Shown here piece by piece: positions 1 through 17,011 of a stretch of 64,000 nucleotides of DNA. Below the pieces are notes generated by a model. The model saw only the letters and a list, made by a program, of their open reading frames with translations, made no database searches and was not told the origin of the DNA. Made by a program: the position numbers and the translations under genes. The stretch is taken from assembly GCA_026914155.1 (NCBI GenBank), contig JAPPGH010000012.1:1-64000 (forward strand). The letters run 5' to 3'. The DNA comes from Candidatus Palauibacter rhopaloidicola. GTDB taxonomy: Bacteria > Gemmatimonadota > Gemmatimonadetes > Palauibacterales > Palauibacteraceae. Every line of letters begins with the position of its first letter. Position 1 is the stretch's first letter.

Positions 1-121
1 GCCCCCGTGGCGCGCCCGCGCCAACACCGGCCGGAGCGCCCAACTCTGGACGACGCGCCCCGTCGTCGCGAGGTTTCAATCGCGCAGATCGTGCAGTCCA
101 TCGAACGAGAGGAATCGAACG

Positions 122-1282
122 ATGGCACGCACGAGAAAAGGCCGCCGGAGCTACGGCGCCGGCGAGTGGGGCCGGAACAGGGTCAGGGTGTTTCCAGACC
201 CGAAAACCGGCCTGTTCCAGATGGAGTGGCGCGAGAACGGGCGGAGGCTCACCCGGTCGCTGGGTCACCGCGATTGGGCGAAAGCGAAGCGGCAGGCGGA
301 CGAAGCCGCTGCCGGGTTCGTCGGCCCGGACCTGAATGGCAAGGCGGAAGCTGAGCCCGAGCCGCTGACTCTGGGGACGCTGTTTGACATCTACGGTGAG
401 GAGGTGACGCCCACCAAGAGGCGGAAGTCCTGGCAGCGGGACAGAGCCGCGATGGCGATGTTCCTCAAGTTTTTCGGCAGGGACCGAAGGCCGGAGACCC
501 TATCCCAGCGTGATTGGGACCGGTTCATCAGGGAGCGCCGCGCGGGAACAGTCGGTCCCAGTGGCCGGCCGGTGGGCAACCGGACGATCGAAGCGGACCT
601 GACGTTCCTCATGGCGGTGCTGAACTGGGCGGCGAGGTCGAGGGACGAGAACGGTCGGCTGCTGCTGGACCGGAATCCGCTCAAGGGTTTCCGCAAGCCC
701 GTCGAGAAGAACCCCACCCGGGTTGTTCTCACCGAAGAGGAGTACCAGGCGCTGCTCGGAGTCTCGGCGCGGTTGGACTGGCGCTTCCGTGTCGCGCTCG
801 TGTTCGCGCACGAGACCGGGCACAGGATCGGCGCGATTCGCAACCTGCTGTGGTCCGATGTGGACTTCGAGGGCGAAACCATCCGCTGGCGGGCGCAGCA
901 CGAGAAGACGGGCTACGAGCACTCGACGCCCTTGACGCCCGAAGCCATGGAAGCCCTTGAGGAGGCGCGAACGCACCACCCCGCTGGCGCGGACGCGCCG
1001 GTGCTGCCTGCGACCCGGAATCCCTCGGAGTGCGTGGGCTTCCCGCAGATCCGCTTCTGGTGGAAGCGGGCCGAGCGGCTCGCGGGACTGGAGCCGAAGC
1101 GCGGCAGGGGGTGGCACTCGCTGAGGCGGAAGTTCGCCAGCGACCTGATGGACCTGCCGCTGAAGGTGCTCTGCGAGCTCGGAGGCTGGAAGGCGGCCAA
1201 GACGGTGCTGCGCTGCTATCAACAGCCCGACCAGGCCCAACTCAGGCAGGCGATCCGGAGCCGCCGGAGGGCGCGGGGCTGA
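122..1282 (+). CDS. Tyrosine recombinase / phage-type integrase
   Basis: Site-specific recombinase of the tyrosine family, which cuts and rejoins DNA to insert or excise a mobile element. The 386-residue protein has a basic N-terminal arm, a SAM-like core-binding region (about residues 85-175) and a C-terminal catalytic domain. The catalytic set is visible: Arg235 in TGHRIGAI, a Lys in HEKTGY, His332 and Arg335 in WHSLRR, Trp in GGWKAAKTVLR, and the nucleophile Tyr366 in RCYQQ. Length and residues are those of an intact integrase. The ATG at 122 follows GAGAGGAATCGAACG, a fair ribosome site. No excisionase or other phage gene lies between it and the downstream PKS remnant, which begins within about 60 bases of its stop. 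It is therefore a plausible agent of the PKS truncation. No att repeat could be identified. Confidence 0.93.
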   Translation: MARTRKGRRSYGAGEWGRNRVRVFPDPKTGLFQMEWRENGRRLTRSLGHRDWAKAKRQADEAAAGFVGPDLNGKAEAEPEPLTLGTLFDIYGEEVTPTKRRKSWQRDRAAMAMFLKFFGRDRRPETLSQRDWDRFIRERRAGTVGPSGRPVGNRTIEADLTFLMAVLNWAARSRDENGRLLLDRNPLKGFRKPVEKNPTRVVLTEEEYQALLGVSARLDWRFRVALVFAHETGHRIGAIRNLLWSDVDFEGETIRWRAQHEKTGYEHSTPLTPEAMEALEEARTHHPAGADAPVLPATRNPSECVGFPQIRFWWKRAERLAGLEPKRGRGWHSLRRKFASDLMDLPLKVLCELGGWKAAKTVLRCYQQPDQAQLRQAIRSRRRARG

Positions 1283-1344
1283 AATCGACTCGGCGGGAAC
1301 GGAACGGCGGGAAACCGCCCGCAGAATCCCGTAAGTTCAACAAC

Positions 1345-4300
1345 CACAACAGTTCCGAATGGGATCACGAATGCTGGTCCAACATCCGCAGCCCCGTCCT
1401 CTTCGGCGCAGCGATGGAGACCGTGAGGCGGGAATGCCGGCCCGACGTGGTCCTGGAGATCGCCCCGCACGGCGCGCTGCAGCCGCTCATCCGGCAGTGT
1501 CTGGAAGCGGCCAGCCCAGCCGCGGCCTGTCTCCCCACACTGATGAAGGATGAGGATGCGTGCCCGCGCTTTCAGGAGGCCATGGGGAACCTCTACCGGG
1601 CCGGCGTCACGTTGGATTTTGCCTCGCAGTATCCGCGCCCGGAACCCATCGCTCATCTCCTTCCCGGCCATCCCAAGGAAGAGACCACGACCAGCGATGA
1701 CCTGGTGGACGACGAGATTTTCGTCCGGCGCGGCGAGTACTCCCACGGCCCGCTCGTCGGACACCGCGTCGCCTGCGACCACGTCCTGTTCGAGGCGCGG
1801 CTCTCCGAGAAGGACTTTCCCTGGCTGACCGACCACCGCGTCCACCGGGCCCCGATCATTCCGGCCGCCGGATACATCGAGCTTCTGCTGCAGGCGTTCT
1901 CCGGGGATCCCATCAACATCGAGGAGATCGAGTTCCTGCAGCACACGCCGGTGAACCCGACGCCGGTGCGGCTGCAGACGGCCCTGTTCCCCGTACCCGA
2001 CGCCCCCGGCCAGTTCACGTTCACCATCTCCACCCGATCCTTCGAGGACGATGAGGCGGGAACGCTGCACTGCCGCGGACGGGTGCGGCGCGTGGATGAA
2101 AACCATGCCGTCGATGCATTCCCGACCCTGAACGATGTCCTCGCTTCCGACTTCGATCCCTCGCCCCTCGCGACGGGAGAGGAGTTTTACGACCAGATTG
2201 AAGCGGTCGTCGGGGATGCCTTCGAGTTCGGCCCCGAGTTCCGCAGCGTCCAGCGGATCGAGATGGACTCGGATTCGACGGACCTGCTGTTCGAGATCGA
2301 GGTCGATGAGGAACTTTGGGCGTCCGGCCGCGAGGAGGGATATCTCCTCTATCCCCCGCTCACCGACGGCGGGCTGCAGATTTTTCTACGCTACCTGATG
2401 CGGCTGCCCGACTTCTTCTCCATGCCGCAGCGGGCGTGCGACATCACGTTCGTGCGCCCCCCGACGGGGCCGCGCATCACCTGTTTTCTCGTCGATACGG
2501 GCGACTGGTTCGACGTGGACGAGCGGGGCCAGTACAACAAGCCTCTCGGCGAGCTGTACATCGGGCGGCTCAGCTTCTACGACACCGATACCGGCCAGCT
2601 GCTCGCGCACATCGGGGAGTATCACTCCTTCAACAGCAATCCGCGCTGGAGCGACGTCCCGGACAGCAAGCACCTCATTCGCTGGCAACCCAAGTTCGTG
2701 CCGCCGGCGCCCCGGATCGGAGAGGCGATCCGGGACGGAGACGTCGATCCCGCCGCCCTCATCGCCGCCCTCGAACAGGGTGCGGCAGGCGACCCGTACG
2801 CCTGTCACGTCATCGAGACCGCCGGCCGCCGGGACGCGGAGCGGACCATGCTCGACCGATGCCTGGAGCATCTCTCCGGCCCCGACGCGCAGAGCGAGTA
2901 CTGGCTGCTAGGCGCCGATGAAGAGTCCACGCGCGCACTCTACGACGCCTTCAACCACCGTGATGCCGCGATTCGCTTCGCGTCGCTGGACGCCACGGCG
3001 GAGGACGCGTTCGACATGGACATGGCGACGGGTCTGCTACGGCCCGCCGCGGCCGAAATCATCCTTCTGCACCGTGACGCGGGCGAAGACGGAGCGGCCG
3101 GGGATCGCTGGACCGAAGCGTGGGCGCTTCTCGAGCGGCTGGCCGTACCCGGGGGACTCGCGCTCGTCTCGCATGCCGAGAGCGACATCATCGAGCCGGG
3201 GAACGGCTGGACCACGCTTCATGCCGGCCCCCGCACGACCCTCCTGCAGGCTGGGCAGGAGGGTTTCGCTCCGACCGGCGCGACCGCGGCTTCGACCGGC
3301 GCCGCCGGTCCCCGCTGGGTGATCGGCGAACCCGACAGCCTGGCCACGGAGTGGATTGCGCAACTCGAGTCGGCCCAAGCGTATCGCGTCCCCTGGAGCG
3401 CCCTCGACGGCGGCGATTTTGCATCGCTGGAAGAGTGGCCGTGGGGTGCGGACCTCGAGGCGATCGATTTCTTCGTCGGGGCGGACCTGGATGATCCGAC
3501 GGGCGAGCGAGCGGTGTGGCGCCTCGTCGCCTTCCTCCAGGCCCTCGCGCCCTTCCGGCTGGAGAGCGCGACCCGGAGTTGTCGCCTGAACGTCGTGACG
3601 CAGGGCGCCGTTTGCGGCGTGGAGGCGCCGCGAGGGAGCGCGTTGTGGGGAGCCGTGCGCAGCCTGGCGCTCGAGCTTCTCGCCGAGGACACAAAGATCG
3701 ACTTCCGTCTCGTGGATCTGGGCGCCGCCGGCGACCTGGAGGCGCTGGCCCGGCTCGACGCGTGTGACCCGCGCGAGCGGGAGCTGGCGATCAGGGACGG
3801 ACGCCTGTGGGTGCCGCGCGTCGTGAGCGTTCGGGATCGCTGGCCGCTCGTGCCCGCGGAATCGGATCCCCCCTACCGGCTCCGGCTCGACAACCCCGGC
3901 CAGGTGAGCGGCCTGCAGGTGGCGACCACCGCGTTGCCCCCGCTCGGACCCTCCGACGTCGAGATCGAGATGGCCGCGGCGGCGCTGAACTTTCGGGATG
4001 TCATGGTGACGCTGGGGCTTCTCCCCGCGATGGCCTACGAGCGCTCGGCGCTGGGCCGCGAGGTCGGCATCGAGGGGAGCGGCGTCGTACGCCGCGCCGG
4101 CCCGGACGTGAAGCGCCTGAGCCCCGGAGACGAGGTGGCCGTCACGACGGGCGGCTGCATCGCCAACCGAATCGTCGTGAACGAGCACCTGGCCTTCCTC
4201 AAGCCGCCCGGGTTGAGCATGGAGGAGGCCGCGGCGTCCCTCTCCGTCACCGTGACCGCGTACTACGCGCTCATCCACCTGGCCCGTCTCAAGGAGGGAC

Positions 4301-6192
4301 AGCGGGTCCTCATCCACTCCGCGATGGGCGGCGTCGGACAGGCGGCGATCGCGCTGGCGCACCACGTCGGAGCGGAGGTCTACGCGACCGCCGGCAATCG
4401 GAGCAAGCGCGAGCAGTTGCTCGAGATGGGCGTGCGCGGGGCGTTCGATTCGCACAGCCACGAGTGGTACGACGACCTGATGGAGGCAACGGGGGGCGAA
4501 GGCGTCGATGTCGTGTTGAATTCGCTCGCGGGCCACCACATCGCCCTGTGCCTCAAGGCCCTTAGGCCATCGGGGTGGCACTGCGAGATCGGGAAGGTCG
4601 ACATCTTCACGGACAACTCGCTCGGCATGCGGGTCTTCCGCAAGAACCTCCGCTTCGCCGCGATCGACGTCGACCGGCTAATGCTCGACGATCCGGTGCT
4701 GTCGCACGTGCTCTCGCAGGCCTGTCTGGACCTCATGAACGAGGGTGCGGTGCCGCCACCGCGACTCACCGCCTACGGGTACGGCGACTACGCCAGGGCG
4801 CTCCGCCTGATGACGACGGGCCGGCACCAGGGGAAACTGGTCCTGAAGACGCCGTCCGACGCGGCGAATCGGGGGTTCGCGATCGCGGACACGCGCCCCT
4901 TCCTCGACCCGGAGGCCACCTACCTGGTCACGGGCGGGCTGGGCGGTTTCGGGCTGCGCCTGGTGCCCTACCTGATCGCGGCGGGGGCCCGGCACGTCAC
5001 CCTGATGGACCGCGATCCGGAGCGTCGACGGAGCGTCGAGTGGCTCCGCCAGACGACCACGCTGTCGAAGATGACCGGCGATTACGAAATCGAGATCGTT
5101 TCGGGCGACGTGCGCGACGCGGAGGATGTGCGCCGCTGCATCGCCGGGGTGCGACGGCCGCTCAAGGGCGTTTTCCACCTCGCCGGAACGCTGGAGGACC
5201 GCTCGTTCCTCGACACTTCAGCCGAGTCCCTGGAGAATGTGTTCGCGCCCAAGGCGCGCGGCGCTTTGAACCTGCACGATGCCACGACCGACTGCGCCCT
5301 CGACTACTTCGTCCTCTTCTCGTCCATCGCCTCGACGTTCGGGAACGTGGGGCAGGTCAACTACAGCAGCGCGAGCGCCTTTCTGGACGGGCTGGCGGCT
5401 TGGCGTCGCCAGCAGGGGCTGCCGGGGTTCTCGTACAACCTCGGCCCCGTCACGGAGGTCGGGATGGCGGCGCGCAGCCTCCACGTGATGCGGATGATGC
5501 GCGCGGCGGGAATGACGACGGTGAGCGCGAATTTCGCGATCGCCAATCTCGACTACGCCCTGCGCGCCATGGCGCCCGGCACGCCGGAGCGCGGCACGCC
5601 GGAGCGGGGCACGACGGGGCATGACCATCTGGTCACCGCGCTCTTCTCCAACCCGGCGTGGACCGTCGATTCCCCGGATTACATGCGCAACGGGCGCCTG
5701 CTGAACAACCAGGCGGCGTTCGAGGTGAACGTGCGCGGCGAACTGACCCTCGAGAGCGTTGTCGCGCAGATCTCCGCCAAGGTGGCCGAGCTTTGCGGGC
5801 ACGAAGAGGGCGATGTCGCCGAGCCGCTGTCGAGCTTCGGGCTCACCTCGATTTCGGTCGCGGAACTCGGCGCCTTCATCCAGGCCCAGTTCAACCGGCA
5901 GGTGAGCGCCCTCGAGCTGATGACGACCGCCTCCGCCCTGTCACTGGCGGAGATGATCGTATACGGAGCCGAATCGGATGGGGAGGGTGAGACCGCGGCC
6001 GAAACCGACGGGTCGGCGGAGGTCTCACGGCAACCCGTACACCGGGTACGCCGGCGGCGCTCGCCCTTCGCGAACAGGTTCGAGGACCACTTCCCAAAGG
6101 ATGAACCCGCCCCGGTTCACGGCTTCGACGGATCCGCGCGACGAGTGATTTCGTCGACGGTGCCGAACGCCGGTTCTGTCGCGGGTGACTGA
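1345..6192 (+). pseudogene. Type I polyketide synthase, 5'-truncated (ATc-DH-psiMT-ER-KR-ACP)
   Basis: Reducing type I PKS module that has lost its KS and most of its AT. Homology starts abruptly near 1345 with the end of an acyltransferase domain (WSNIRSPVLF, then LEIAPHGALQPLIRQ, to about 1650). Next come DH (1740-2680), a degenerate C-methyltransferase-like stretch (2700-3290, keeping only a VPGGLALVSH half-motif), a KR structural subdomain (3300-3840), ER (3880-4850, NADPH motif GGVGQAAIALA), catalytic KR (4915-5560, TGGLGGFG plus SSIAS...VNYSSAS) and ACP (5745-5960, FGLTSIS with the pantetheine Ser at 5848). The DH His motif reads HRVHRAPIIP, so the usual Gly is Arg. KR has LED at the LDD position, suggesting B-type stereochemistry. 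The frame is open back into the integrase, but the first in-family ATG is 1414 without a clear ribosome site. It overlaps the next gene. Without KS it cannot extend chains alone, so it is called a remnant. Confidence 0.85.
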
Positions 6193-6199
6193 TTCCGCC

Positions 6200-6892
6200 A
6201 TGGCCAGCGCATCCGCGACAAGGCACCAGGTGCCGCCACTGGTAGGGACCCTGCCGCCCGATTGCCAGCGCGATCTCACCACCCTGCGCCGATCCGTTCG
6301 CGCCGCGCTAGCCGAGGCAACCCCGGCTCCCGCGGTTTCGCCCGCGGACCTTCGCAATGTCCTGGTCACCGGCGCAACCGGATTCGTCGGTCGTTTCCTC
6401 GTGCGAGACCTGCTCGCTCACGAATCCGAAGTGACGGTCCATTGCGTCGTGCGAGCCGAATCGGCGGAACGCGGCTTCGAGCGACTGCGCGCCAACATGG
6501 AACACGCGGAGACCTGGGACGATGCGTTCACGTCGAGAATCCACGTTTACGCCGGTGATGTCTCGCAGTCCCGCTTCGGGCTCTCGCACTCCGACTTCGA
6601 CCGGCTGTGCCGGGAAATCGACGCTGTCTACCACCTTGCGGCCAACCCGAACCTGATCGCGTCCTACCGGTCTCTCCGCCAGGTAAACGCTCTCGGAGTG
6701 CGCGAGGTCCTCCGGCTGTGTCTGAGTGCGCGCCTCAAGCACCTGTTTCACGTATCGACGATGGGTGTGTTCCCGGAGTATGTGCACTCCTTTGCCGGCG
6801 AATACAGCGACTGCTACATCGGTGACCATGCGCAGCCGGACCTGGGTCGAATGAAGAGGGTGATGCCGCTCGGGTTGCTCGGGTATACCTAG
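6200..6892 (+). CDS. Thioester reductase domain, N-terminal half (ends at premature TAG)
   Basis: First part of a thioester reductase (NAD-binding, male-sterility-like SDR) that would reduce an ACP-bound chain to aldehyde or alcohol. The Rossmann motif VTGATGFVGRFLV lies near residues 54-66 and the SDR Ser in VSTMGVF near residue 192. The frame stops at TAG (6890-6892), codon 231 from the ATG at 6200. The context reads Gly-Tyr-Thr-stop-Ser-Lys-Leu-Val-Ala-Glu, where relatives have a residue such as Gln, so a CAG to TAG change is the simplest explanation. The stop splits the catalytic Tyr229 from Lys233. The same frame continues open to 8707 and encodes the rest of the reductase and a sulfotransferase. 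As it stands this piece cannot be active unless the stop is read through. A GTG at 6185, overlapping the PKS stop, is an alternative start. Confidence 0.8.
   Translation: MASASATRHQVPPLVGTLPPDCQRDLTTLRRSVRAALAEATPAPAVSPADLRNVLVTGATGFVGRFLVRDLLAHESEVTVHCVVRAESAERGFERLRANMEHAETWDDAFTSRIHVYAGDVSQSRFGLSHSDFDRLCREIDAVYHLAANPNLIASYRSLRQVNALGVREVLRLCLSARLKHLFHVSTMGVFPEYVHSFAGEYSDCYIGDHAQPDLGRMKRVMPLGLLGYT
6890..6892 (+). other. In-frame amber codon inside the reductase YxxxK motif
   Basis: TAG at codon 231 of the reductase-sulfotransferase fusion, between the catalytic Tyr (codon 229) and Lys (codon 233). Homology is continuous across it in one frame, so this is a substitution, not an indel. TAG serves as an ordinary stop for several unbroken genes here (9807, 19197, 25531, 27242, 40639, 50155, 58660), which argues against code reassignment. 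It marks either recent pseudogenisation, a read error, or readthrough. Confidence 0.85.
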
Positions 6893-6901
6893 AGCAAGCT
6901 T

Positions 6902-8707
6902 GTGGCGGAACAGGCCGTCCTGTTCGCGCATCAGGCCGGCTTGCCGGTGGCCGTCTTCCGTTTCGGGCAAACCACCATGGCCTCCACCGGTTACGCCCAG
7001 TCGGACACCCCTCCACAGCTTGTCTTCGCGGCGGCGGTCCAGGTCGGCATGATTCCGCAGGGGTTCACCATGCGGGCCACCGACGATCCGGCGGATACGC
7101 TGACGCGCATGTGCACCGACATTTCCATGAATGTGAATCGGCGCTTCACCATCTACAACTGCTGCAACAACGCGCCGTCGTACCGGGCCATGCAGCTCGC
7201 GGAGTTCGGCCTCGATTATCCGGAGGTTCCCTACACCGTTTTCAAGCGCGCCTGCCAGGCGCACGGGGACGCGTCTCCGATGGCCCGCAGCTGGCCCCTG
7301 TTCGATCACTTCGCCCCCTATTGGTTTCGGGGCTCCGAAACGGTCCAGACGCTGCCGGTCTCCGACCGGGCCATTCGAGAGGACTGTCCTGGTGACATCA
7401 ACTGGCCGGGTCCTCTCACCAGGTATGTCCGCTACAACCGCTGGGTCAGGGAGCGTGAGGAGGAGTGGCCGCAGGCGATTCCGCAGCTGGGGGTCAGCCT
7501 GGACAGCGTGCTGAAGCAGGCCCGGCGATACGCCAGGGACAACGGCGTGTCCTTCGACACCACCTACCCCGAGTGGATGCTCGAGGGATTGGCCCGTCTC
7601 GTCGAGGGCTTCAACGCTCCCGAAGCCGGCCTGCTGGCAAAGCGCATCGGGCATTGCGTGTTCGACCTGTGCCGAATACTGCGCAACAACGCCGAACTGG
7701 CCGGAGAGCGCATGCGGCTGCCGGAGATCGGGCGGCAGCCAATCGAACGGCCGGTGTTCATCGTGGGCATCAACAGGACGGGCACGACCTTCCTGCACCG
7801 TCTATTGGCCCGGGACCCGCGGTTCTGGGCCTTGCGGGCCTACGAATACGTCGAGCCCGTCATTCCGGACGGCGGCTACGCAACGGTCGTCGGCACTCTC
7901 CGGGATCCCCGCCGCATCAAGGCGGCGGACGTATTCGCAGCGGCGAACATCGTAGATACTCTCGCGGGCTTTCACCATGCCGGGCTCGACGAACCGGAAG
8001 AGGATATCCCGATCCTCAGGTTGTCGCTCAAGACATGGGTGTTCGCGACTCGATATCGGCTTCCCGAGTACGAGCGCTGGCTCGAGGAAAGCGGCACCCG
8101 CGAGGCCTACCACGTGCATCGCCGCACCATGCAGCACTACAATTATCAGCGGAGGGCCTGTCACCCGGGCCACGAGGGCCAATGGATCTTCAAGATGCCG
8201 ACCCATCTGATGGAACTGGGCGCCCTGCTTGAGGCATATCCCGACGCCCTGTTCATTCAGACGCATCGCGAACCCGTCGAATTCATGGGGTCCTGGTGCA
8301 GTCTGGTGGAGCGCTTCCGGTCGGAAATCAGCGAGCCGCGCCCCCGCAAGGAGCTCGGTACCGAACAACTGAGAGCGATGAGTCGCATGCTTGACCGCGC
8401 GGTTGAGTTTCGGCGGTCGCACCCCGAACTGGAGCACCGCTGGCACGATGTGAGCTTCTACGATCTGGTCCGCGACCCCATTGCAGTTGTGGTCGGCATC
8501 TATCGTCGGTTCGGTTGGTCGATGGAGTCCGAGTCGATTGAGGCGATGAAAGCCTGGTTCTGGAAGCAGCGGGAGCAACGGCGCGTAGAGAAGCGGCACA
8601 AGTACGATCTCGCGGACCACGGCTTGACGCGCGAAATGATCGACGAGGCGTTCGCGAGCTATCGCGATTTCCTGTCGGGCAGCGGCCGCCGGGCTTCGCT
8701 TTTGTGA
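6902..8707 (+). CDS. Thioester reductase C-terminal half fused to sulfotransferase
   Basis: Continuation, in the same frame, of the interrupted reductase. It opens with the end of the catalytic helix (KLVAEQAVLFAHQ) and FRFGQTTMAS, and the reductase substrate domain runs to about 7450. A linker is followed by a PAPS-dependent sulfotransferase of the Sulfotransfer_3 type (about 7740-8680). It has the 5'-phosphosulfate loop VGINRTGTTFLHRLL, a WIFKMPTHL segment and THREPVEFMGSWCS near the 3'-phosphate site. With the codon at 6890 sense, the whole gene would be 835 residues. The GTG at 6902 gives a predicted start only because of the upstream stop; a re-initiated product would lack the reductase Rossmann fold but keep the entire sulfotransferase, so sulfotransferase activity may survive. 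Together with the PKS it suggests a pathway to a sulfated lipid (inference). Confidence 0.82.
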   Translation: MAEQAVLFAHQAGLPVAVFRFGQTTMASTGYAQSDTPPQLVFAAAVQVGMIPQGFTMRATDDPADTLTRMCTDISMNVNRRFTIYNCCNNAPSYRAMQLAEFGLDYPEVPYTVFKRACQAHGDASPMARSWPLFDHFAPYWFRGSETVQTLPVSDRAIREDCPGDINWPGPLTRYVRYNRWVREREEEWPQAIPQLGVSLDSVLKQARRYARDNGVSFDTTYPEWMLEGLARLVEGFNAPEAGLLAKRIGHCVFDLCRILRNNAELAGERMRLPEIGRQPIERPVFIVGINRTGTTFLHRLLARDPRFWALRAYEYVEPVIPDGGYATVVGTLRDPRRIKAADVFAAANIVDTLAGFHHAGLDEPEEDIPILRLSLKTWVFATRYRLPEYERWLEESGTREAYHVHRRTMQHYNYQRRACHPGHEGQWIFKMPTHLMELGALLEAYPDALFIQTHREPVEFMGSWCSLVERFRSEISEPRPRKELGTEQLRAMSRMLDRAVEFRRSHPELEHRWHDVSFYDLVRDPIAVVVGIYRRFGWSMESESIEAMKAWFWKQREQRRVEKRHKYDLADHGLTREMIDEAFASYRDFLSGSGRRASLL

Positions 8708-12314: not shown

Positions 12315-13892
12315 ATGCCGGAGTCCGCGGGGACGGGGCCCGAGACGGCCCGCTGGGCGAAAGTCATCGACCACACCCGCTGTATCGGCTGCCACGCCTG
12401 CACGACGGCCTGCAAGTCGGAGAACGAGGTCCCGCTCGGCGTCACCCGCACCTACGTGAAGTACGCCGACGTGGGGACCTTTCCGGCCGCGCGGCGCGCC
12501 TTCCAGGTCACGCGCTGCAACCAGTGTGACGACGCGCCGTGCACGACCGCGTGCCCGACCCAAGCCATGTTCCGCCGTCCCGACGGGATCGTGGACTTCG
12601 ACAAGTCGATCTGCATCGGCTGCAAGGCGTGCATCGCCGCCTGTCCCTACGACGCGATCTTCATCAACCCCGACGACCATTCCGCGGAGAAGTGCAACTT
12701 CTGCGCCCACCGGATCGACATGGGGCTGGAGCCGGCCTGCGTCACCGTGTGCCCGACGGAGGCGATCATCGTCGGCGACCTCGACGACCCGGAATCGAAG
12801 GTCTCGCAATACGTAGGGCGCGATCCGGTGAGCGTCCGGAGGCCTGAGAAGGAGACCCACCCGAAGCTGTTCTACAAGGGCGCGCACCAGGCGACGCTCG
12901 ATCCGCTGGCGGCGGTCCGTCCCGGGGGCGGGCTGTACATGTGGAGCGAGCAGCCCGAGGGTCCGCACGAGGTCGGCTCGGGCCAGCCGCACCCGATGGG
13001 AACGGACGGACGGCACGGCCCGAACTCCTCGGCCGCCGCGATCCTCTCCTACGATGTCTCGCACACCGCGCCGTGGGACTGGCGCGTGAGCCTGTACACG
13101 CTCACCAAGGGGGTCTCCGCCGGCGTGTACCTCGCCGTGCTCCTCCTCTGCCTGCTGGGCGGGTTCGCGTGGCAGGGCGGGACCTGGCTCACCCTCACGC
13201 CGCTCCTCGGTCTCGCCGCGCTCGCGCTCACCGGCGGGCTGCTGATCTGGGACCTGGAGCACCCGAAGCGCTTCCTCCTCATCTTCACGAGACCCCACAT
13301 GAAGAGCTGGCTCGTGCGGGGGGCGTTCGTGATCGCGGGCTACGGCGCGGCGCTGACCGCGCACCTCGCGGCGGCGCTGGTCGGCGGCGCCGGGGCCGCC
13401 GAGACGACGCGCTGGATGGCGTGGGCGGGGGCGCCCCTGGCCGGCATGACCGCGGTCTACACGGCGTACCTCTTCGCACAGGCCCGGGCGCGCGATTTGT
13501 GGCAGAATCCGCTCCTGCCGCCGCACTTTCTCGTACAGGCGCTGCTGGCGGGCGGCGCGACCCTGATGCTCTTCCCGTCGCTCGGCGGCTCCGCCGCGCT
13601 GGGCCGGCTCGTGGGGCTCACGGCCGCCGCTCACCTCCTGCTCGTGCTCGCCGAACTCACGCTCACGCACGCGACGGCCCACGCCGCCCTCGCCGCCCGG
13701 AACATGGTGCGCGGCCGCTACGCCCCCTGGTTCTGGAGCGGCATCCTGCTCGTGACGCTCGCGGCCGCCCTCACCGTGATCCCGCTCGCCGGCGCCTGGG
13801 TCGCCCCACTGATCGGCCTCGCCGCCCTCGCCGGGCTCCTCGCGCACGAGCACGCCTACGTGCAGGCCGGCCAGTCCGTGCCCCTCGCATGA
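12315..13892 (+). CDS. Molybdoenzyme electron-transfer subunit: four-cluster ferredoxin fused to NrfD-like membrane anchor
   Basis: 525-residue fusion of the B and C subunits of a complex iron-sulfur molybdoenzyme. The N-terminal half is a DmsB/PsrB-type ferredoxin with four cysteine groups: CIGCHACTTAC, CNQCDDAPCTTAC, CIGCKACIAAC, and CNFC followed 11 residues later by CVTVC. This is the classic pattern for four [4Fe-4S] clusters passing electrons. After a linker (about 185-245) comes an NrfD/PsrC-like domain with roughly eight to nine transmembrane helices, expected to exchange electrons with the quinone pool. B and C subunits are usually separate genes. The ATG at 12315 has GGGGAG upstream. 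Its stop overlaps the catalytic subunit start (ATGA), showing tight coupling. The ferredoxin has no Tat or Sec leader, so it probably faces the cytoplasm. Confidence 0.9.
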   Translation: MPESAGTGPETARWAKVIDHTRCIGCHACTTACKSENEVPLGVTRTYVKYADVGTFPAARRAFQVTRCNQCDDAPCTTACPTQAMFRRPDGIVDFDKSICIGCKACIAACPYDAIFINPDDHSAEKCNFCAHRIDMGLEPACVTVCPTEAIIVGDLDDPESKVSQYVGRDPVSVRRPEKETHPKLFYKGAHQATLDPLAAVRPGGGLYMWSEQPEGPHEVGSGQPHPMGTDGRHGPNSSAAAILSYDVSHTAPWDWRVSLYTLTKGVSAGVYLAVLLLCLLGGFAWQGGTWLTLTPLLGLAALALTGGLLIWDLEHPKRFLLIFTRPHMKSWLVRGAFVIAGYGAALTAHLAAALVGGAGAAETTRWMAWAGAPLAGMTAVYTAYLFAQARARDLWQNPLLPPHFLVQALLAGGATLMLFPSLGGSAALGRLVGLTAAAHLLLVLAELTLTHATAHAALAARNMVRGRYAPWFWSGILLVTLAAALTVIPLAGAWVAPLIGLAALAGLLAHEHAYVQAGQSVPLA

Positions 13893-16800
13893 GCGACCCG
13901 GGCGGCGCGGGCCGCAACGGCCCCGGCGCCGGCGGCAACGGCTCCGGCCCGGACGGCGTCACGCGGCGGCTCCACGAACTCAGCGAGCGCGTGAGCGCCG
14001 CGCGCTCGGCGACCGAGGCCCGCGGCGAGACCTTCTATCCCGGCCCCAGCCGCAACCAGCTCGCCGCCTTCCCCCCGCGGGAACGGTGGGACGACTGGGT
14101 CGAACTCGACTCGAAGGCCTGGCCCGAGCGCCGCGAACGGCGCTACATGCTCGTGCCCACGACCTGCTTCAACTGCGAGTCCGCGTGCGGGCTCCTGGCC
14201 TACGTCGACCGCGACACCCTCCAGGTGCAGAAGTTCGAGGGGAACCCCGAGCATCCGGGCTCCCGGGGCAGGAACTGCGCCAAGGGCCCGGCCACGCTGA
14301 ACCAGATCGTCGACCCCGACCGCGTCCTCTACCCGCTCAAGCGCGCCGGCGAGCGCGGGGAGGGGAAGTGGGTGCGCGTCTCGTGGGAGGAGGCGCTCAA
14401 CGACATCTCGGCCCGGATCCGCACGGCCATCGACGAGGGTCGCCAGCGCGAGGTCATGTACCATGTCGGGCGTCCGGGCGAGGACGGGTTCACGGAGCGG
14501 GTGCTCGCCGCGTGGGGCGTCGACGGCCACAACTCGCACACGAACATCTGTTCCTCGAGCGCGCGCGCCGGCTACCAGTTCTGGCTCGGAATGGACCGCC
14601 CCAGCCCCGACCACGCCCGCGCGGACGTCATCCTCCTCGTGAGTTCCCACCTCGAGGCGGGGCACTACTTCAACCCCCACGCCCAGCGCATCCTGGACGG
14701 GGTCAAGAAGGGGGCGCGGCTCATCGTCTTCGACACGCGCCTGTCGAACACGGCGACGCACGCCGACCACTGGCTCCCCACCCAACCCGGCTCCGAGGCC
14801 GCCGTCCTCCTCGCGATCGCGAACCACCTGATCGCGACGGGGGCCTGGAACCGCGATTTCGTGCGGCGCTGGTTCAACTGGGAGGAATATCTCGCCGCCG
14901 AAAAGCCGACCCTCCCGCGCACCTTCGAATCGTTCGAGGCCGCACTCCGGGAACTGTATGAAGCGTGCACCTTCGAATGGGCCGCAGAGGAGTCCGGCAT
15001 CGATGCGGAGCAGATCCGCGAGGTCGCCGAACTCGTGGCGCGGGCCGGGTCGCGCCTCTCCACGCACAACTGGCGCAGCGCCGCGTCGGGCAACGAGGGC
15101 GGCTGGCAGGTGGCCCGGACGCTCTTCTTTCTCAACGCCCTCACGGGTTCCGTGGCGACCCCCGGCGGCACCTATCCGAGTACGTGGAACAAGTTCATCC
15201 CGAAGCCGATCCGCATGCCGCGGCACCCGGAGCACTGGAACGATCTCACCTGGCCCGACGAGTTTCCGCTGGCGATGTACGAGGTCTCCTTCCTCCTCCC
15301 GCACCTCCTCAAGGAGGGACGCGGCAAGCTCGACGTCTACTTCACGCGCGTGTACAACCCGGTGTGGACGAATCCGGACGGGTTCGCGTGGATCGAGGCC
15401 CTGACGGATGAGGAGAAGGTCGGCCTCCATGTCGCGCTCACGCCGACCTGGAACGAGTCCGCCTACTTCGCGGACTACGTCCTTCCGATGGGACACGGAC
15501 CCGAGCGGCACGACCTCCACTCCTACGAGACGCACGACGGCCAGTGGATCGGCTTCCGGCAGCCCGTGCTGCGCTCCGCCCGGCAGCGTCTCGGCGAGCA
15601 GGTGGCGGACACGCGCCACACGAACCCGGGCGAAGTGTGGGAGGAGAACGAGTTCTGGCTCGAACTCTCCTGGCGCATCGACCCGGACGGCGGCCTCGGG
15701 ATCCGCGAGTTCGTGGAGTCGAAGGAGAAGCCCGGACAGCGCCTCACGGTGGATGAGTACTACGCCTGGATGTTCGAGCACTCGGTGCCCGGCCTGCCCG
15801 AGGCGGCGGCCGCGCAGGGGCTCTCGCCGCTGGACTACATGCGCCGCTACGGCGCCTTCGAGGTGGCGCGCGACATCGGTCCGCTGCACGAGCGGCCCGT
15901 CCCGCCCGAGGAACTCGAGGACGCGCGGGAGGATGAGTTCGGCCGCGTCTACACGCGGGCCCCGGGCCCCGCCGCGGTGAACCTCGCACCCATGGGCGCG
16001 CCCGATCCGGATCCGGAGGGGCGGCGCCCGGTGGGCGTCCGCGTGGACGACACGATTCGGCGCGGATTCCCGACCCCGAGCGGCAAGCTGGAGTTCTACT
16101 CCCCCACGCTCGTCCGCTGGGGGTGGCCCGAGTACGCGGTGCCCGCCTACATCCGGAGCCATGTGCATCCGGCCGCCATGGAGCCGGACCAGATGTGCCT
16201 CATCTCCACCTTCCGCCTCCCGGTGCAGATCCACACGCGTTCGGCCAACTCCAAGTGGCTGGATGAGATCGCCCACACGAACCCGCTCTGGCTCCACCCG
16301 TCCGACGCGGCGCGGAAGGGGGTGAGGACGGGAGATCTCGTGCGGGTCGAGACCGAGATCGGCCACTTCGTCCTCAAGGCGTGGGTGACGGAGGGGATCA
16401 AGCCGGGCGTCGTCGCGTGCAGCCACCACATGGGGCGCTGGAAGCTGGCGGACGCGGCGGGATCGGGTCCGGACGCGGGCGAACCGGGGACGGCCGGCCG
16501 CGGCGAGCGGGAGAACATGGCCGGCCAGCGGCAGCTCATGGCCACGGTCTCTCTCTCGGGGCAAGGCGGCGACTGGAAGCTGTCACGCAGGCAGGGCGCG
16601 GCGCCGTACGAGACCGACGACCCGGACACGTCGCGGATCTGGTGGACGGATGTGGGCGTCCACCAGAACCTCACCTTCCCGGTGCACCCGGACCCGGTGT
16701 CCGGCATGCACTGCTGGCACCAGGCCGTGCGCGTGGTCAAGGCGTCGCGGCGCGACCGTCACGGGGACATTCACGTCGACACGGCCCGGTCGCACGAGGT

Positions 16801-17011
16801 GTACCGGCAGTGGCTCGACAAGACGCGCGGGGCCGTGCGGCATTCTCCGGACGGGACGCGCCGGCCGCACTGGCTCATCCGCCCCGTGCGTCCCGTGCGC
16901 ACGGCATACGACCTCCCGGAACCCCGCGCCTCGAAGCCGCCCGACCCGGGCTCGCCGACTACCGATGGGGCGCAACTTGACAGCAAATCGAGCCCCCCAT
17001 CTACTTCGTAA
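13889..17011 (+). CDS. Molybdopterin oxidoreductase catalytic subunit (DMSO reductase superfamily)
   Basis: 1040-residue molybdenum bis-MGD enzyme. A proximal [4Fe-4S] site is formed by CFNCESACG and, after about 27 residues, GRNCAKG. The Mo-bis-MGD domains run through SSHLEAGHYFNPHA, VFDTRLSNTATHADHW and a C-terminal nucleotide domain with LISTFRLPVQIHTRSANSKWLDE. NICSSSARAGYQF is the likely active-site segment. There is no twin-arginine leader at the N-terminus, which is Gly/Pro-rich, so the subunit probably works in the cytoplasm, as in SoeABC-type sulfite dehydrogenases; polysulfide, tetrathionate and other relatives are usually exported. The ATG at 13889 overlaps the stop of the BC-fusion subunit. 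The downstream TorD-like chaperone fits cofactor loading. The substrate cannot be fixed from sequence; sulfur oxyanion oxidation is the leading guess. Confidence 0.88.
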   Translation: MSDPGGAGRNGPGAGGNGSGPDGVTRRLHELSERVSAARSATEARGETFYPGPSRNQLAAFPPRERWDDWVELDSKAWPERRERRYMLVPTTCFNCESACGLLAYVDRDTLQVQKFEGNPEHPGSRGRNCAKGPATLNQIVDPDRVLYPLKRAGERGEGKWVRVSWEEALNDISARIRTAIDEGRQREVMYHVGRPGEDGFTERVLAAWGVDGHNSHTNICSSSARAGYQFWLGMDRPSPDHARADVILLVSSHLEAGHYFNPHAQRILDGVKKGARLIVFDTRLSNTATHADHWLPTQPGSEAAVLLAIANHLIATGAWNRDFVRRWFNWEEYLAAEKPTLPRTFESFEAALRELYEACTFEWAAEESGIDAEQIREVAELVARAGSRLSTHNWRSAASGNEGGWQVARTLFFLNALTGSVATPGGTYPSTWNKFIPKPIRMPRHPEHWNDLTWPDEFPLAMYEVSFLLPHLLKEGRGKLDVYFTRVYNPVWTNPDGFAWIEALTDEEKVGLHVALTPTWNESAYFADYVLPMGHGPERHDLHSYETHDGQWIGFRQPVLRSARQRLGEQVADTRHTNPGEVWEENEFWLELSWRIDPDGGLGIREFVESKEKPGQRLTVDEYYAWMFEHSVPGLPEAAAAQGLSPLDYMRRYGAFEVARDIGPLHERPVPPEELEDAREDEFGRVYTRAPGPAAVNLAPMGAPDPDPEGRRPVGVRVDDTIRRGFPTPSGKLEFYSPTLVRWGWPEYAVPAYIRSHVHPAAMEPDQMCLISTFRLPVQIHTRSANSKWLDEIAHTNPLWLHPSDAARKGVRTGDLVRVETEIGHFVLKAWVTEGIKPGVVACSHHMGRWKLADAAGSGPDAGEPGTAGRGERENMAGQRQLMATVSLSGQGGDWKLSRRQGAAPYETDDPDTSRIWWTDVGVHQNLTFPVHPDPVSGMHCWHQAVRVVKASRRDRHGDIHVDTARSHEVYRQWLDKTRGAVRHSPDGTRRPHWLIRPVRPVRTAYDLPEPRASKPPDPGSPTTDGAQLDSKSSPPSTS

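What the first reader, a model, noticed from the sequence alone, without database searches (positions are those of the whole stretch)
1283..1700. Integrase abuts a PKS that has lost KS and most of AT
The tyrosine recombinase ends at 1282 and recognisable AT sequence begins within about 60 bases (WSNIRSPVLF), two-thirds of the way through an acyltransferase domain. The upstream 121 bases show no PKS sequence. This looks like integration into, or deletion at, a PKS gene, leaving a headless module. The junction between 1283 and 1345 may be an att core. Alternatively, the KS/AT half may lie upstream of the mobile element, outside this window.
Basis: partly seen in the sequence, partly recalled or inferred. 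Interest (0 to 1): 0.7.

Follow-up and report, generated by a model that had tools for sequence, protein, structure and literature searches.

The report
Mobile element splits polyketide synthase gene
In an uncultured Gemmatimonadota genome, an element carrying a tyrosine integrase sits inside a polyketide synthase gene: the missing front half of the gene is on another contig and sister species have the gene uncut, and the element likely entered by matching a 7-base sequence, as its many relatives appear to have done in other genes.

Summary
The PKS has not lost its KS and AT. The window begins at base 1 of contig C31 of an unnamed MAG. The KS and the front two-thirds of the AT lie on contig C37 of the same genome and run into the other end of a mobile element. 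Both junctions carry the 7-bp core TGGTCCA (window 1375-1381; C37 3340-3346). Sister genome G010 has the same site uncut on one contig, and the halves abut in 12 of 12 relatives with the orthologue. So an integrase-bearing element is inserted exactly in the AT codons. It belongs to a large family: integrase relatives occur in 35 of 60 genomes searched. In 19 of 20 other pairs of ends the same 7-mer stands at both ends, 95-109 nt past the integrase match. The 7-mer differs between elements but follows integrase kinship, and host sites fit G-N-[7]-N-C. Members also split a gamma-glutamyltranspeptidase, a P450 and NikA/MobC genes. A regulated PKS switch is unlikely: the next gene has an in-frame stop at 6890 where six of six relatives read on. 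I file it as a new, multi-copy, gene-disrupting variant of a known kind: tyrosine-integrase integrative elements. Excision was not tested.

The parts
1..1374 (+). Integrase-bearing (right) end of the element; the contig begins inside the element
   Evidence: Window = G000:C31:1-64000; alignment to the uncut contig of G010 begins at 1375
122..1282 (+). Tyrosine recombinase (integrase), 386 aa; R235, K262, H332, R335, W356, Y366
   Evidence: PF00589 E 2.9e-17; these six residues are the same in all 24 aligned family members
1291..1313 (+). Two copies of CGGCGGGAA (1291-1299, 1305-1313); candidate arm-type integrase sites (inferred)
   Evidence: Sequence; similar GGCGGGAA repeats in the right ends printed and in left ends
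1375..1381 (+). Right core TGGTCCA (attR), host/element junction; same 7 bp at C37 3340-3346 (attL)
   Evidence: the perfect repeat is exactly 7 bp
1375..6192 (+). 3' part of the PKS gene: AT C-terminal third, DH, ER, KR, ACP
   Evidence: Pfam; 1568 of 1601 aligned residues identical to G010
6185..8707 (+). Thioester reductase + sulfotransferase frame, broken by an in-frame TAG at 6890-6892
   Evidence: open frame of 840-967 aa through this point in 6 of 6 relatives checked

Best explanation
An element carrying a tyrosine integrase sits inside the acyltransferase part of a single-module polyketide synthase gene, with the KS-AT half on contig C37 and the rest in this window, each half ending at the same 7-bp core TGGTCCA; the element most likely entered by integrase-catalysed exchange between its own core and the identical 7 bp in the gene, and likely inactivates it. 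Shown: both junctions, the exact 7-bp repeat, the uncut gene in relatives, and the same anatomy in 19 of 20 other pairs of ends. Inferred: that the two contigs bracket one element (its middle is not assembled), that this integrase did it, that the 7 bp is the strand-exchange overlap, and that the split protein is dead. The outer overlap letters appear to be set by the integrase clade while middle letters vary (TGG-T/C/G-CCA among the nearest relatives). Identical cores at both ends suggest that productive integration needs full identity across the 7 bp. The pathway is probably decaying rather than switched, because the next gene also carries a stop codon.
For: Window is at a contig start. KS and AT (to profile position 239) end on C37 in the same genome; only 4 AT matches exist there and none is an intact copy of this PKS. 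Empty site: window 1375-6425 and C37 3340-25037 align to G010:C110 with a 7-bp overlap at 5036-5042; the gene is contiguous across the site in 12 of 12 relatives with the orthologue. Reciprocal empty site: the closest integrases (G010 93%, G006 91%) abut another gene with core TGGCCCA, and in G000 that site, on C63, is contiguous. Family rule: 18 of 20 pairs of ends carry the same 7-mer, 19 of 20 after pairing L207 with its outer left end; 1 of 314 deliberately mismatched pairs does. Distinct host sites have G at -2 in 12 of 13 and C at +2 in 13 of 13. Core similarity follows integrase identity (Mantel r 0.58, 0 of 5000 permutations, n=24).
Against: The middle of the element is missing and no contig or read joins C31 to C37. 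The MAG has 6.1% estimated contamination. No circular form or excised copy was seen; metagenome collections could not be scanned. One of 20 pairs (L236r, integrase a remnant) has no matching right core, and L207 matched only after re-pairing. GNTGGTCCANC occurs 55 times in the genome, 53 besides the two junctions, and the reversed control pattern 130 times, so the 7-bp rule alone does not fix the target. The 18 delimited elements were chosen because both ends were in one locus, and several share a target gene.
Confidence: 0.88

Rival explanations
1. Programmed or reversible switch: the element is excised under some condition and rejoins the PKS reading frame, like the nifD-type interruption elements of heterocyst-forming cyanobacteria.
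For: Exact 7-bp repeat, so precise excision would give back the uncut gene; integrase with the catalytic residues kept; both halves open with low dN/dS against G010 (dN 0.0066/dS 0.021; dN 0.010/dS 0.028). In-gene elements are known in cyanobacteria, one of them in hglE, annotated as a polyketide-type polyunsaturated fatty acid synthase (PMC4874684, abstract and passages).
Against: The next gene of the pathway is broken by an in-frame stop at 6890-6892 where six of six relatives read through. dS is so low that a recent insertion explains the intact halves. The nearest relatives of the element sit in a different gene, and the PKS is free of it in 12 of 12 relatives.
Confidence: 0.08
2. Assembly or binning artefact: the repeated integrase was wrongly joined to unrelated contigs.
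For: 8 of the 12 other matches to window 1-1400 in this genome lie within about 150 bp of a contig end (lengths), so the repeat does break the assembly; contamination 6.1%.
Against: Two independent junctions on two contigs share exactly the 7 bp, align to one G010 contig, and obey the rule seen in 19 of 20 other pairs, including five from G046, whose genome is one contig.
Confidence: 0.03
3. Deletion: a mobile element removed the KS and front of the AT, leaving a headless module.
For: Only the view within the window.
Against: The missing part is on C37, base for base up to the core.
Confidence: 0.01

Closest known systems
Interruption elements of heterocyst-forming cyanobacteria (xisA/xisC-type; PMC4874684, abstract and passages seen)
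   Same: Elements inside protein-coding genes, bracketed by short direct repeats, carrying their own recombinase (tyrosine type in part of them), in many different genes including a polyketide-type synthase
   Different: Those are known to be excised in heterocysts; no excision is shown here and the pathway carries a second lesion. Here each integrase clade keeps its own 7-bp core and a shared left-end motif
Integrative and mobilizable elements (IMEs) with a tyrosine integrase (review PMC5704250, passages seen)
   Same: Single tyrosine integrase at one end; two relatives examined encode a MobA/VirD2-type relaxase (L168 with NikA/MobC too, and L143)
   Different: The review says IMEs mostly use gene ends without breaking the gene and are mostly single-copy; here insertions fall inside genes and copies are many. 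Relaxase presence is unknown for the window's element
Tn916 and similar conjugative transposons (PMC11838328, passages seen)
   Same: Many insertion sites, a variable short sequence between palindromic flanks, both orientations
   Different: Tn916 prefers AT-rich sites and its 6-bp coupling sequence comes from the donor and may not match the target; here the 7 bp is identical at both ends in 19 of 20 pairs and G+C-rich
Strand-biased circularizing elements / Tn554 group (PMC10214605, passages seen)
   Same: Tyrosine recombinase, short variable spacer, insertion in genes
   Different: Those carry two or more recombinases and leave a 6-bp donor footprint at one side; here one integrase and equal cores at both sides

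Membership tests
Tyrosine recombinase / phage-integrase family | Catalytic domain with R-K-H-x-x-R-(H/W)-Y | tested here: met
   PF00589 E 2.9e-17; PHROG integrase families E 9.9e-51; R235, K262, H332, R335, W356, Y366 the same in 24 of 24 aligned rows (the residue roles are recalled)
Site-specific integrative element | Identical short core at both ends, empty site in relatives | tested here: met
   12 of 12 relatives with the orthologue
Integrative and mobilizable element | Relaxase and/or oriT used by a helper conjugative system | tested here: inconclusive
   Relaxase found in relatives L168 and L143; the middle of the window's element is not assembled; oriT not searched
Programmed interruption element | Regulated excision that restores the gene | not testable with these tools
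   No reads or transcripts; in-frame stop in the next gene argues against it
Tn916-type conjugative transposon | Donor-derived coupling sequence that may differ from the target; conjugation genes | tested here: not met
   Cores identical at both ends; conjugation machinery was not systematically searched
Prophage | Phage structural genes / relatives in phage records | tested here: inconclusive
   tblastn of the integrase: 3 of 50,697 phage records, best 29% over 68%; 1 partial relative in IMG/VR; genes of the missing middle unknown

The most novel reading that the evidence does not exclude
A previously undescribed superfamily of integrative elements has spread across bacterial symbiont phyla by jumping into protein genes: each integrase lineage keeps a private 7-bp overlap inside a common G-N-[7]-N-C frame and needs full identity there, so overlap drift lets the family colonise new genes, including the transfer genes of its own kind, and prune biosynthetic pathways such as this PKS.
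Probability: 0.5. Interest if true: 0.65.

Novelty: new variant of a known kind. Interest (0 to 1): 0.5.

Why it matters
It turns a 'headless PKS' into a dated, exact insertion with an empty-site control, and warns that truncated biosynthetic genes at contig ends of such MAGs may be element-split genes, not losses. The family offers dozens of integrases with different predicted 7-bp cores and a readable site rule, which makes the question of how tyrosine integrases change target directly testable. It also gives a cause of fragmentation in these assemblies: 8 of 12 other matches to the window's first 1400 bases in this genome lie at contig ends.

Tried and rejected
Deletion of KS/AT: rejected, the half is on C37. 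Joining the missing middle: C37 1-1300 has no second match in the genome, and C8 matches only window 1-40 at 93%, so the gap stays open. A second interrupted orthologue: G014's shorter frame (1648 aa) runs to its contig end (contig 12,006 bases), not to an element. Site choice by the 7-bp rule alone: rejected, 53 further GNTGGTCCANC sites exist. Phage or plasmid origin: integrase relatives in the collections are remote. Solved structures: only a weak XerC-like match, E 0.0062. Literature: ten searches listed no paper whose title or shown abstract describes this element family; PMC9531527 and PMC10469786 were searched for 'integrase' and 'recombinase' with no occurrence. The library is open-licence papers only. 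Not run: the search for homologous proteins, structure prediction, Rfam.

Full report
What is there. The window is bases 1-64,000 of contig C31 of a 4.1-Mb, 63-contig MAG, completeness 95.8, contamination 6.1. A 386-aa tyrosine recombinase is encoded at 122-1282 (PF00589). The PKS frame that follows holds the AT from profile position 221, DH, ER, KR and ACP.

The missing half. A whole-genome search finds nine ketoacyl-synthase matches and four AT matches. One KS-AT pair, on C37 minus strand, stops at AT profile position 239, and its frame ends at base 3320 of C37 just past the junction. The reading there goes ...DNAYWWS then out of frame with PKS; the window half resumes at ...WSNIRSPVLF. Both junctions contain TGGTCCA: window 1375-1381 and C37 3340-3346 on the minus strand. 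The perfect repeat is exactly 7 bp.

Empty site. Of 60 genomes searched (own included), 14 match the PKS fragment; besides G000 and one weak match (G055) there are 12 with an orthologue at 56-99% identity. In 12 of 12 the two halves abut at the site. Six carry TGGTCCA there, two TGGTCGA, four TGGACGA. Contig C110 of G010 is the best control: window 1375-6425 aligns at 98.5% to C110 5042-1 and C37 3340-25037 at 96-97% to C110 5036-26674, overlapping in exactly 7 bp. The halves match G010 at 804 of 815 and 1568 of 1601 aligned residues, dN 0.0066/dS 0.021 and dN 0.010/dS 0.028.

The element. Its known parts are C37 1-3339 plus window 1-1374, about 4.7 kb; the middle is unassembled. The C37 side encodes an ECF sigma factor cut by the contig end, a DsbA-like thioredoxin and a 6-bladed-propeller protein. 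Window 1-1400 has 12 further matches in the genome, 8 of them within about 150 bp of a contig end, so the repeat itself explains the break.

The family. The integrase has relatives in 35 of 60 genomes (own included), with 32 matches in G058, 18 in G006 and 14 in G046 (many are fragments). In genome contigs 371 stretches matched a pattern, 356 encode a relative and the best 80 were kept: by record title 58 Gemmatimonadota (with Longimicrobiales and BD2-11), 18 Gammaproteobacteria, 3 Acidobacteria and 1 Bryobacterales. Binning errors may inflate the spread, since element contigs are repeats. G046 is record OX639991.1 (Longimicrobiales) by equal length and coordinates; it is in the same class as the window's genome, hence Gemmatimonadota. 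That the record names point to sponge samples is recalled.

The ends. The C37 left end recurs in 8 of 8 genomes searched; a profile from 27 left ends hits 41 places in the loci held. I paired a left end with an integrase on the same strand in 20 cases, chosen because both lay in one locus. In 18 of 20 the 7 bp before the left end recur exactly 95-109 nt past the integrase match. L207 matched once paired with its outer left end (+108), giving 19 of 20. The miss is L236r, whose integrase is a remnant. Control: 19 of 19 own pairs (the 18 plus the window) and 1 of 314 mismatched pairs; the 18 had been selected by that match. Delimited elements are 3.9-20.9 kb. After dropping six that share a target, 13 distinct host sites have G at -2 in 12 and C at +2 in 13; all 19 elements have both. 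The window's site, GG-TGGTCCA-AC, fits. The 7-mer follows integrase kinship (Mantel r 0.58, 0 of 5000, n=24, with shared targets among them). The nearest integrases have TGGCCCA and TGGGCCA.

Reciprocal test. The closest relatives, G010 (93%) and G006 (91%), abut another gene with core TGGCCCA. The two G010 flanks, on separate contigs, meet in one stretch of G000 contig C63 around TGGCCCA. So each genome is empty where the other is filled.

Genes hit. Reading the flanks of 18 elements in matching phase, I judged by eye that 11 split a gene and 7 are unclear. Pfam on ten pieces from seven elements: gamma-glutamyltranspeptidase is split cleanly (profile 2-271 on one side, 275-510 on the other); P450 stops at 413 of 462; NikA/MobC, IS110-type transposase, helix-turn-helix plus IrrE-like, and 6-bladed propeller pieces are hit; the amidohydrolase match is below its cut-off and one piece (L168 left) has no match. 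Three elements sit in the same NikA/MobC-like gene, a gene that other members of the family carry themselves (L168). A few members lie beside tRNA genes (Ala, Arg, Ile) and, for those with enough sequence, form one clade nested among the gene-inserting ones. Cargo of relatives includes restriction and other defence-type genes; two of eight proteins scanned, the integrase included, had no PADLOC match.

Meaning. Integration by exchange over a 7-bp overlap is the ordinary chemistry of tyrosine recombinases (established knowledge). If donor and target overlaps differed, the two ends would be expected to differ after replication; identical ends in 19 of 20 pairs suggest a need for full identity (inference). 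The loss of the AT C-terminal third and the separation from KS likely kill the synthase (inference). A switch is possible in principle, but the next gene, a thioester reductase-sulfotransferase frame, has an in-frame TAG at 6890-6892 where six of six relatives have one open frame of 840-967 aa; G010 is not assembled there. Decay is the better reading.

Verdict. The thing is a new variant of a known kind.

Noticed in passing
window 6890-6892: In-frame TAG in a thioester reductase-sulfotransferase gene just after the PKS; six of six relatives checked read through.
   Followed up: yes
L037 6080-6152; L135 15342-15415; L136 2146-2219: Some integrases of the family lie directly beside tRNA genes (Ala, Arg, Ile); those with enough sequence form one clade inside the gene-inserting ones.
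   Followed up: partly
L129, L130, L131, L209: The same short host repeat carries elements in opposite orientations (cores CGGGCTG and CAGCCCG, reverse complements).
   Followed up: partly
L210, L188, L218: Three elements from different MAGs are inserted at the same point of a NikA/MobC-like mobilisation gene, a gene family that sister elements carry.
   Followed up: partly
L243 about 1758-2605 (G000 contig C63): About 200 bp past the empty TGGCCCA site G000 has roughly 0.8 kb that G010 lacks; nature unknown.
   Followed up: no
G010 contigs C110 start and C144 start: G010's assembly breaks between the positions matching window 6425 and 8129, perhaps another insertion next to the PKS.
   Followed up: no
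window 12315-17011: NrfD/4Fe-4S and molybdopterin oxidoreductase frames downstream of the PKS cluster, unrelated to the finding.
   Followed up: no
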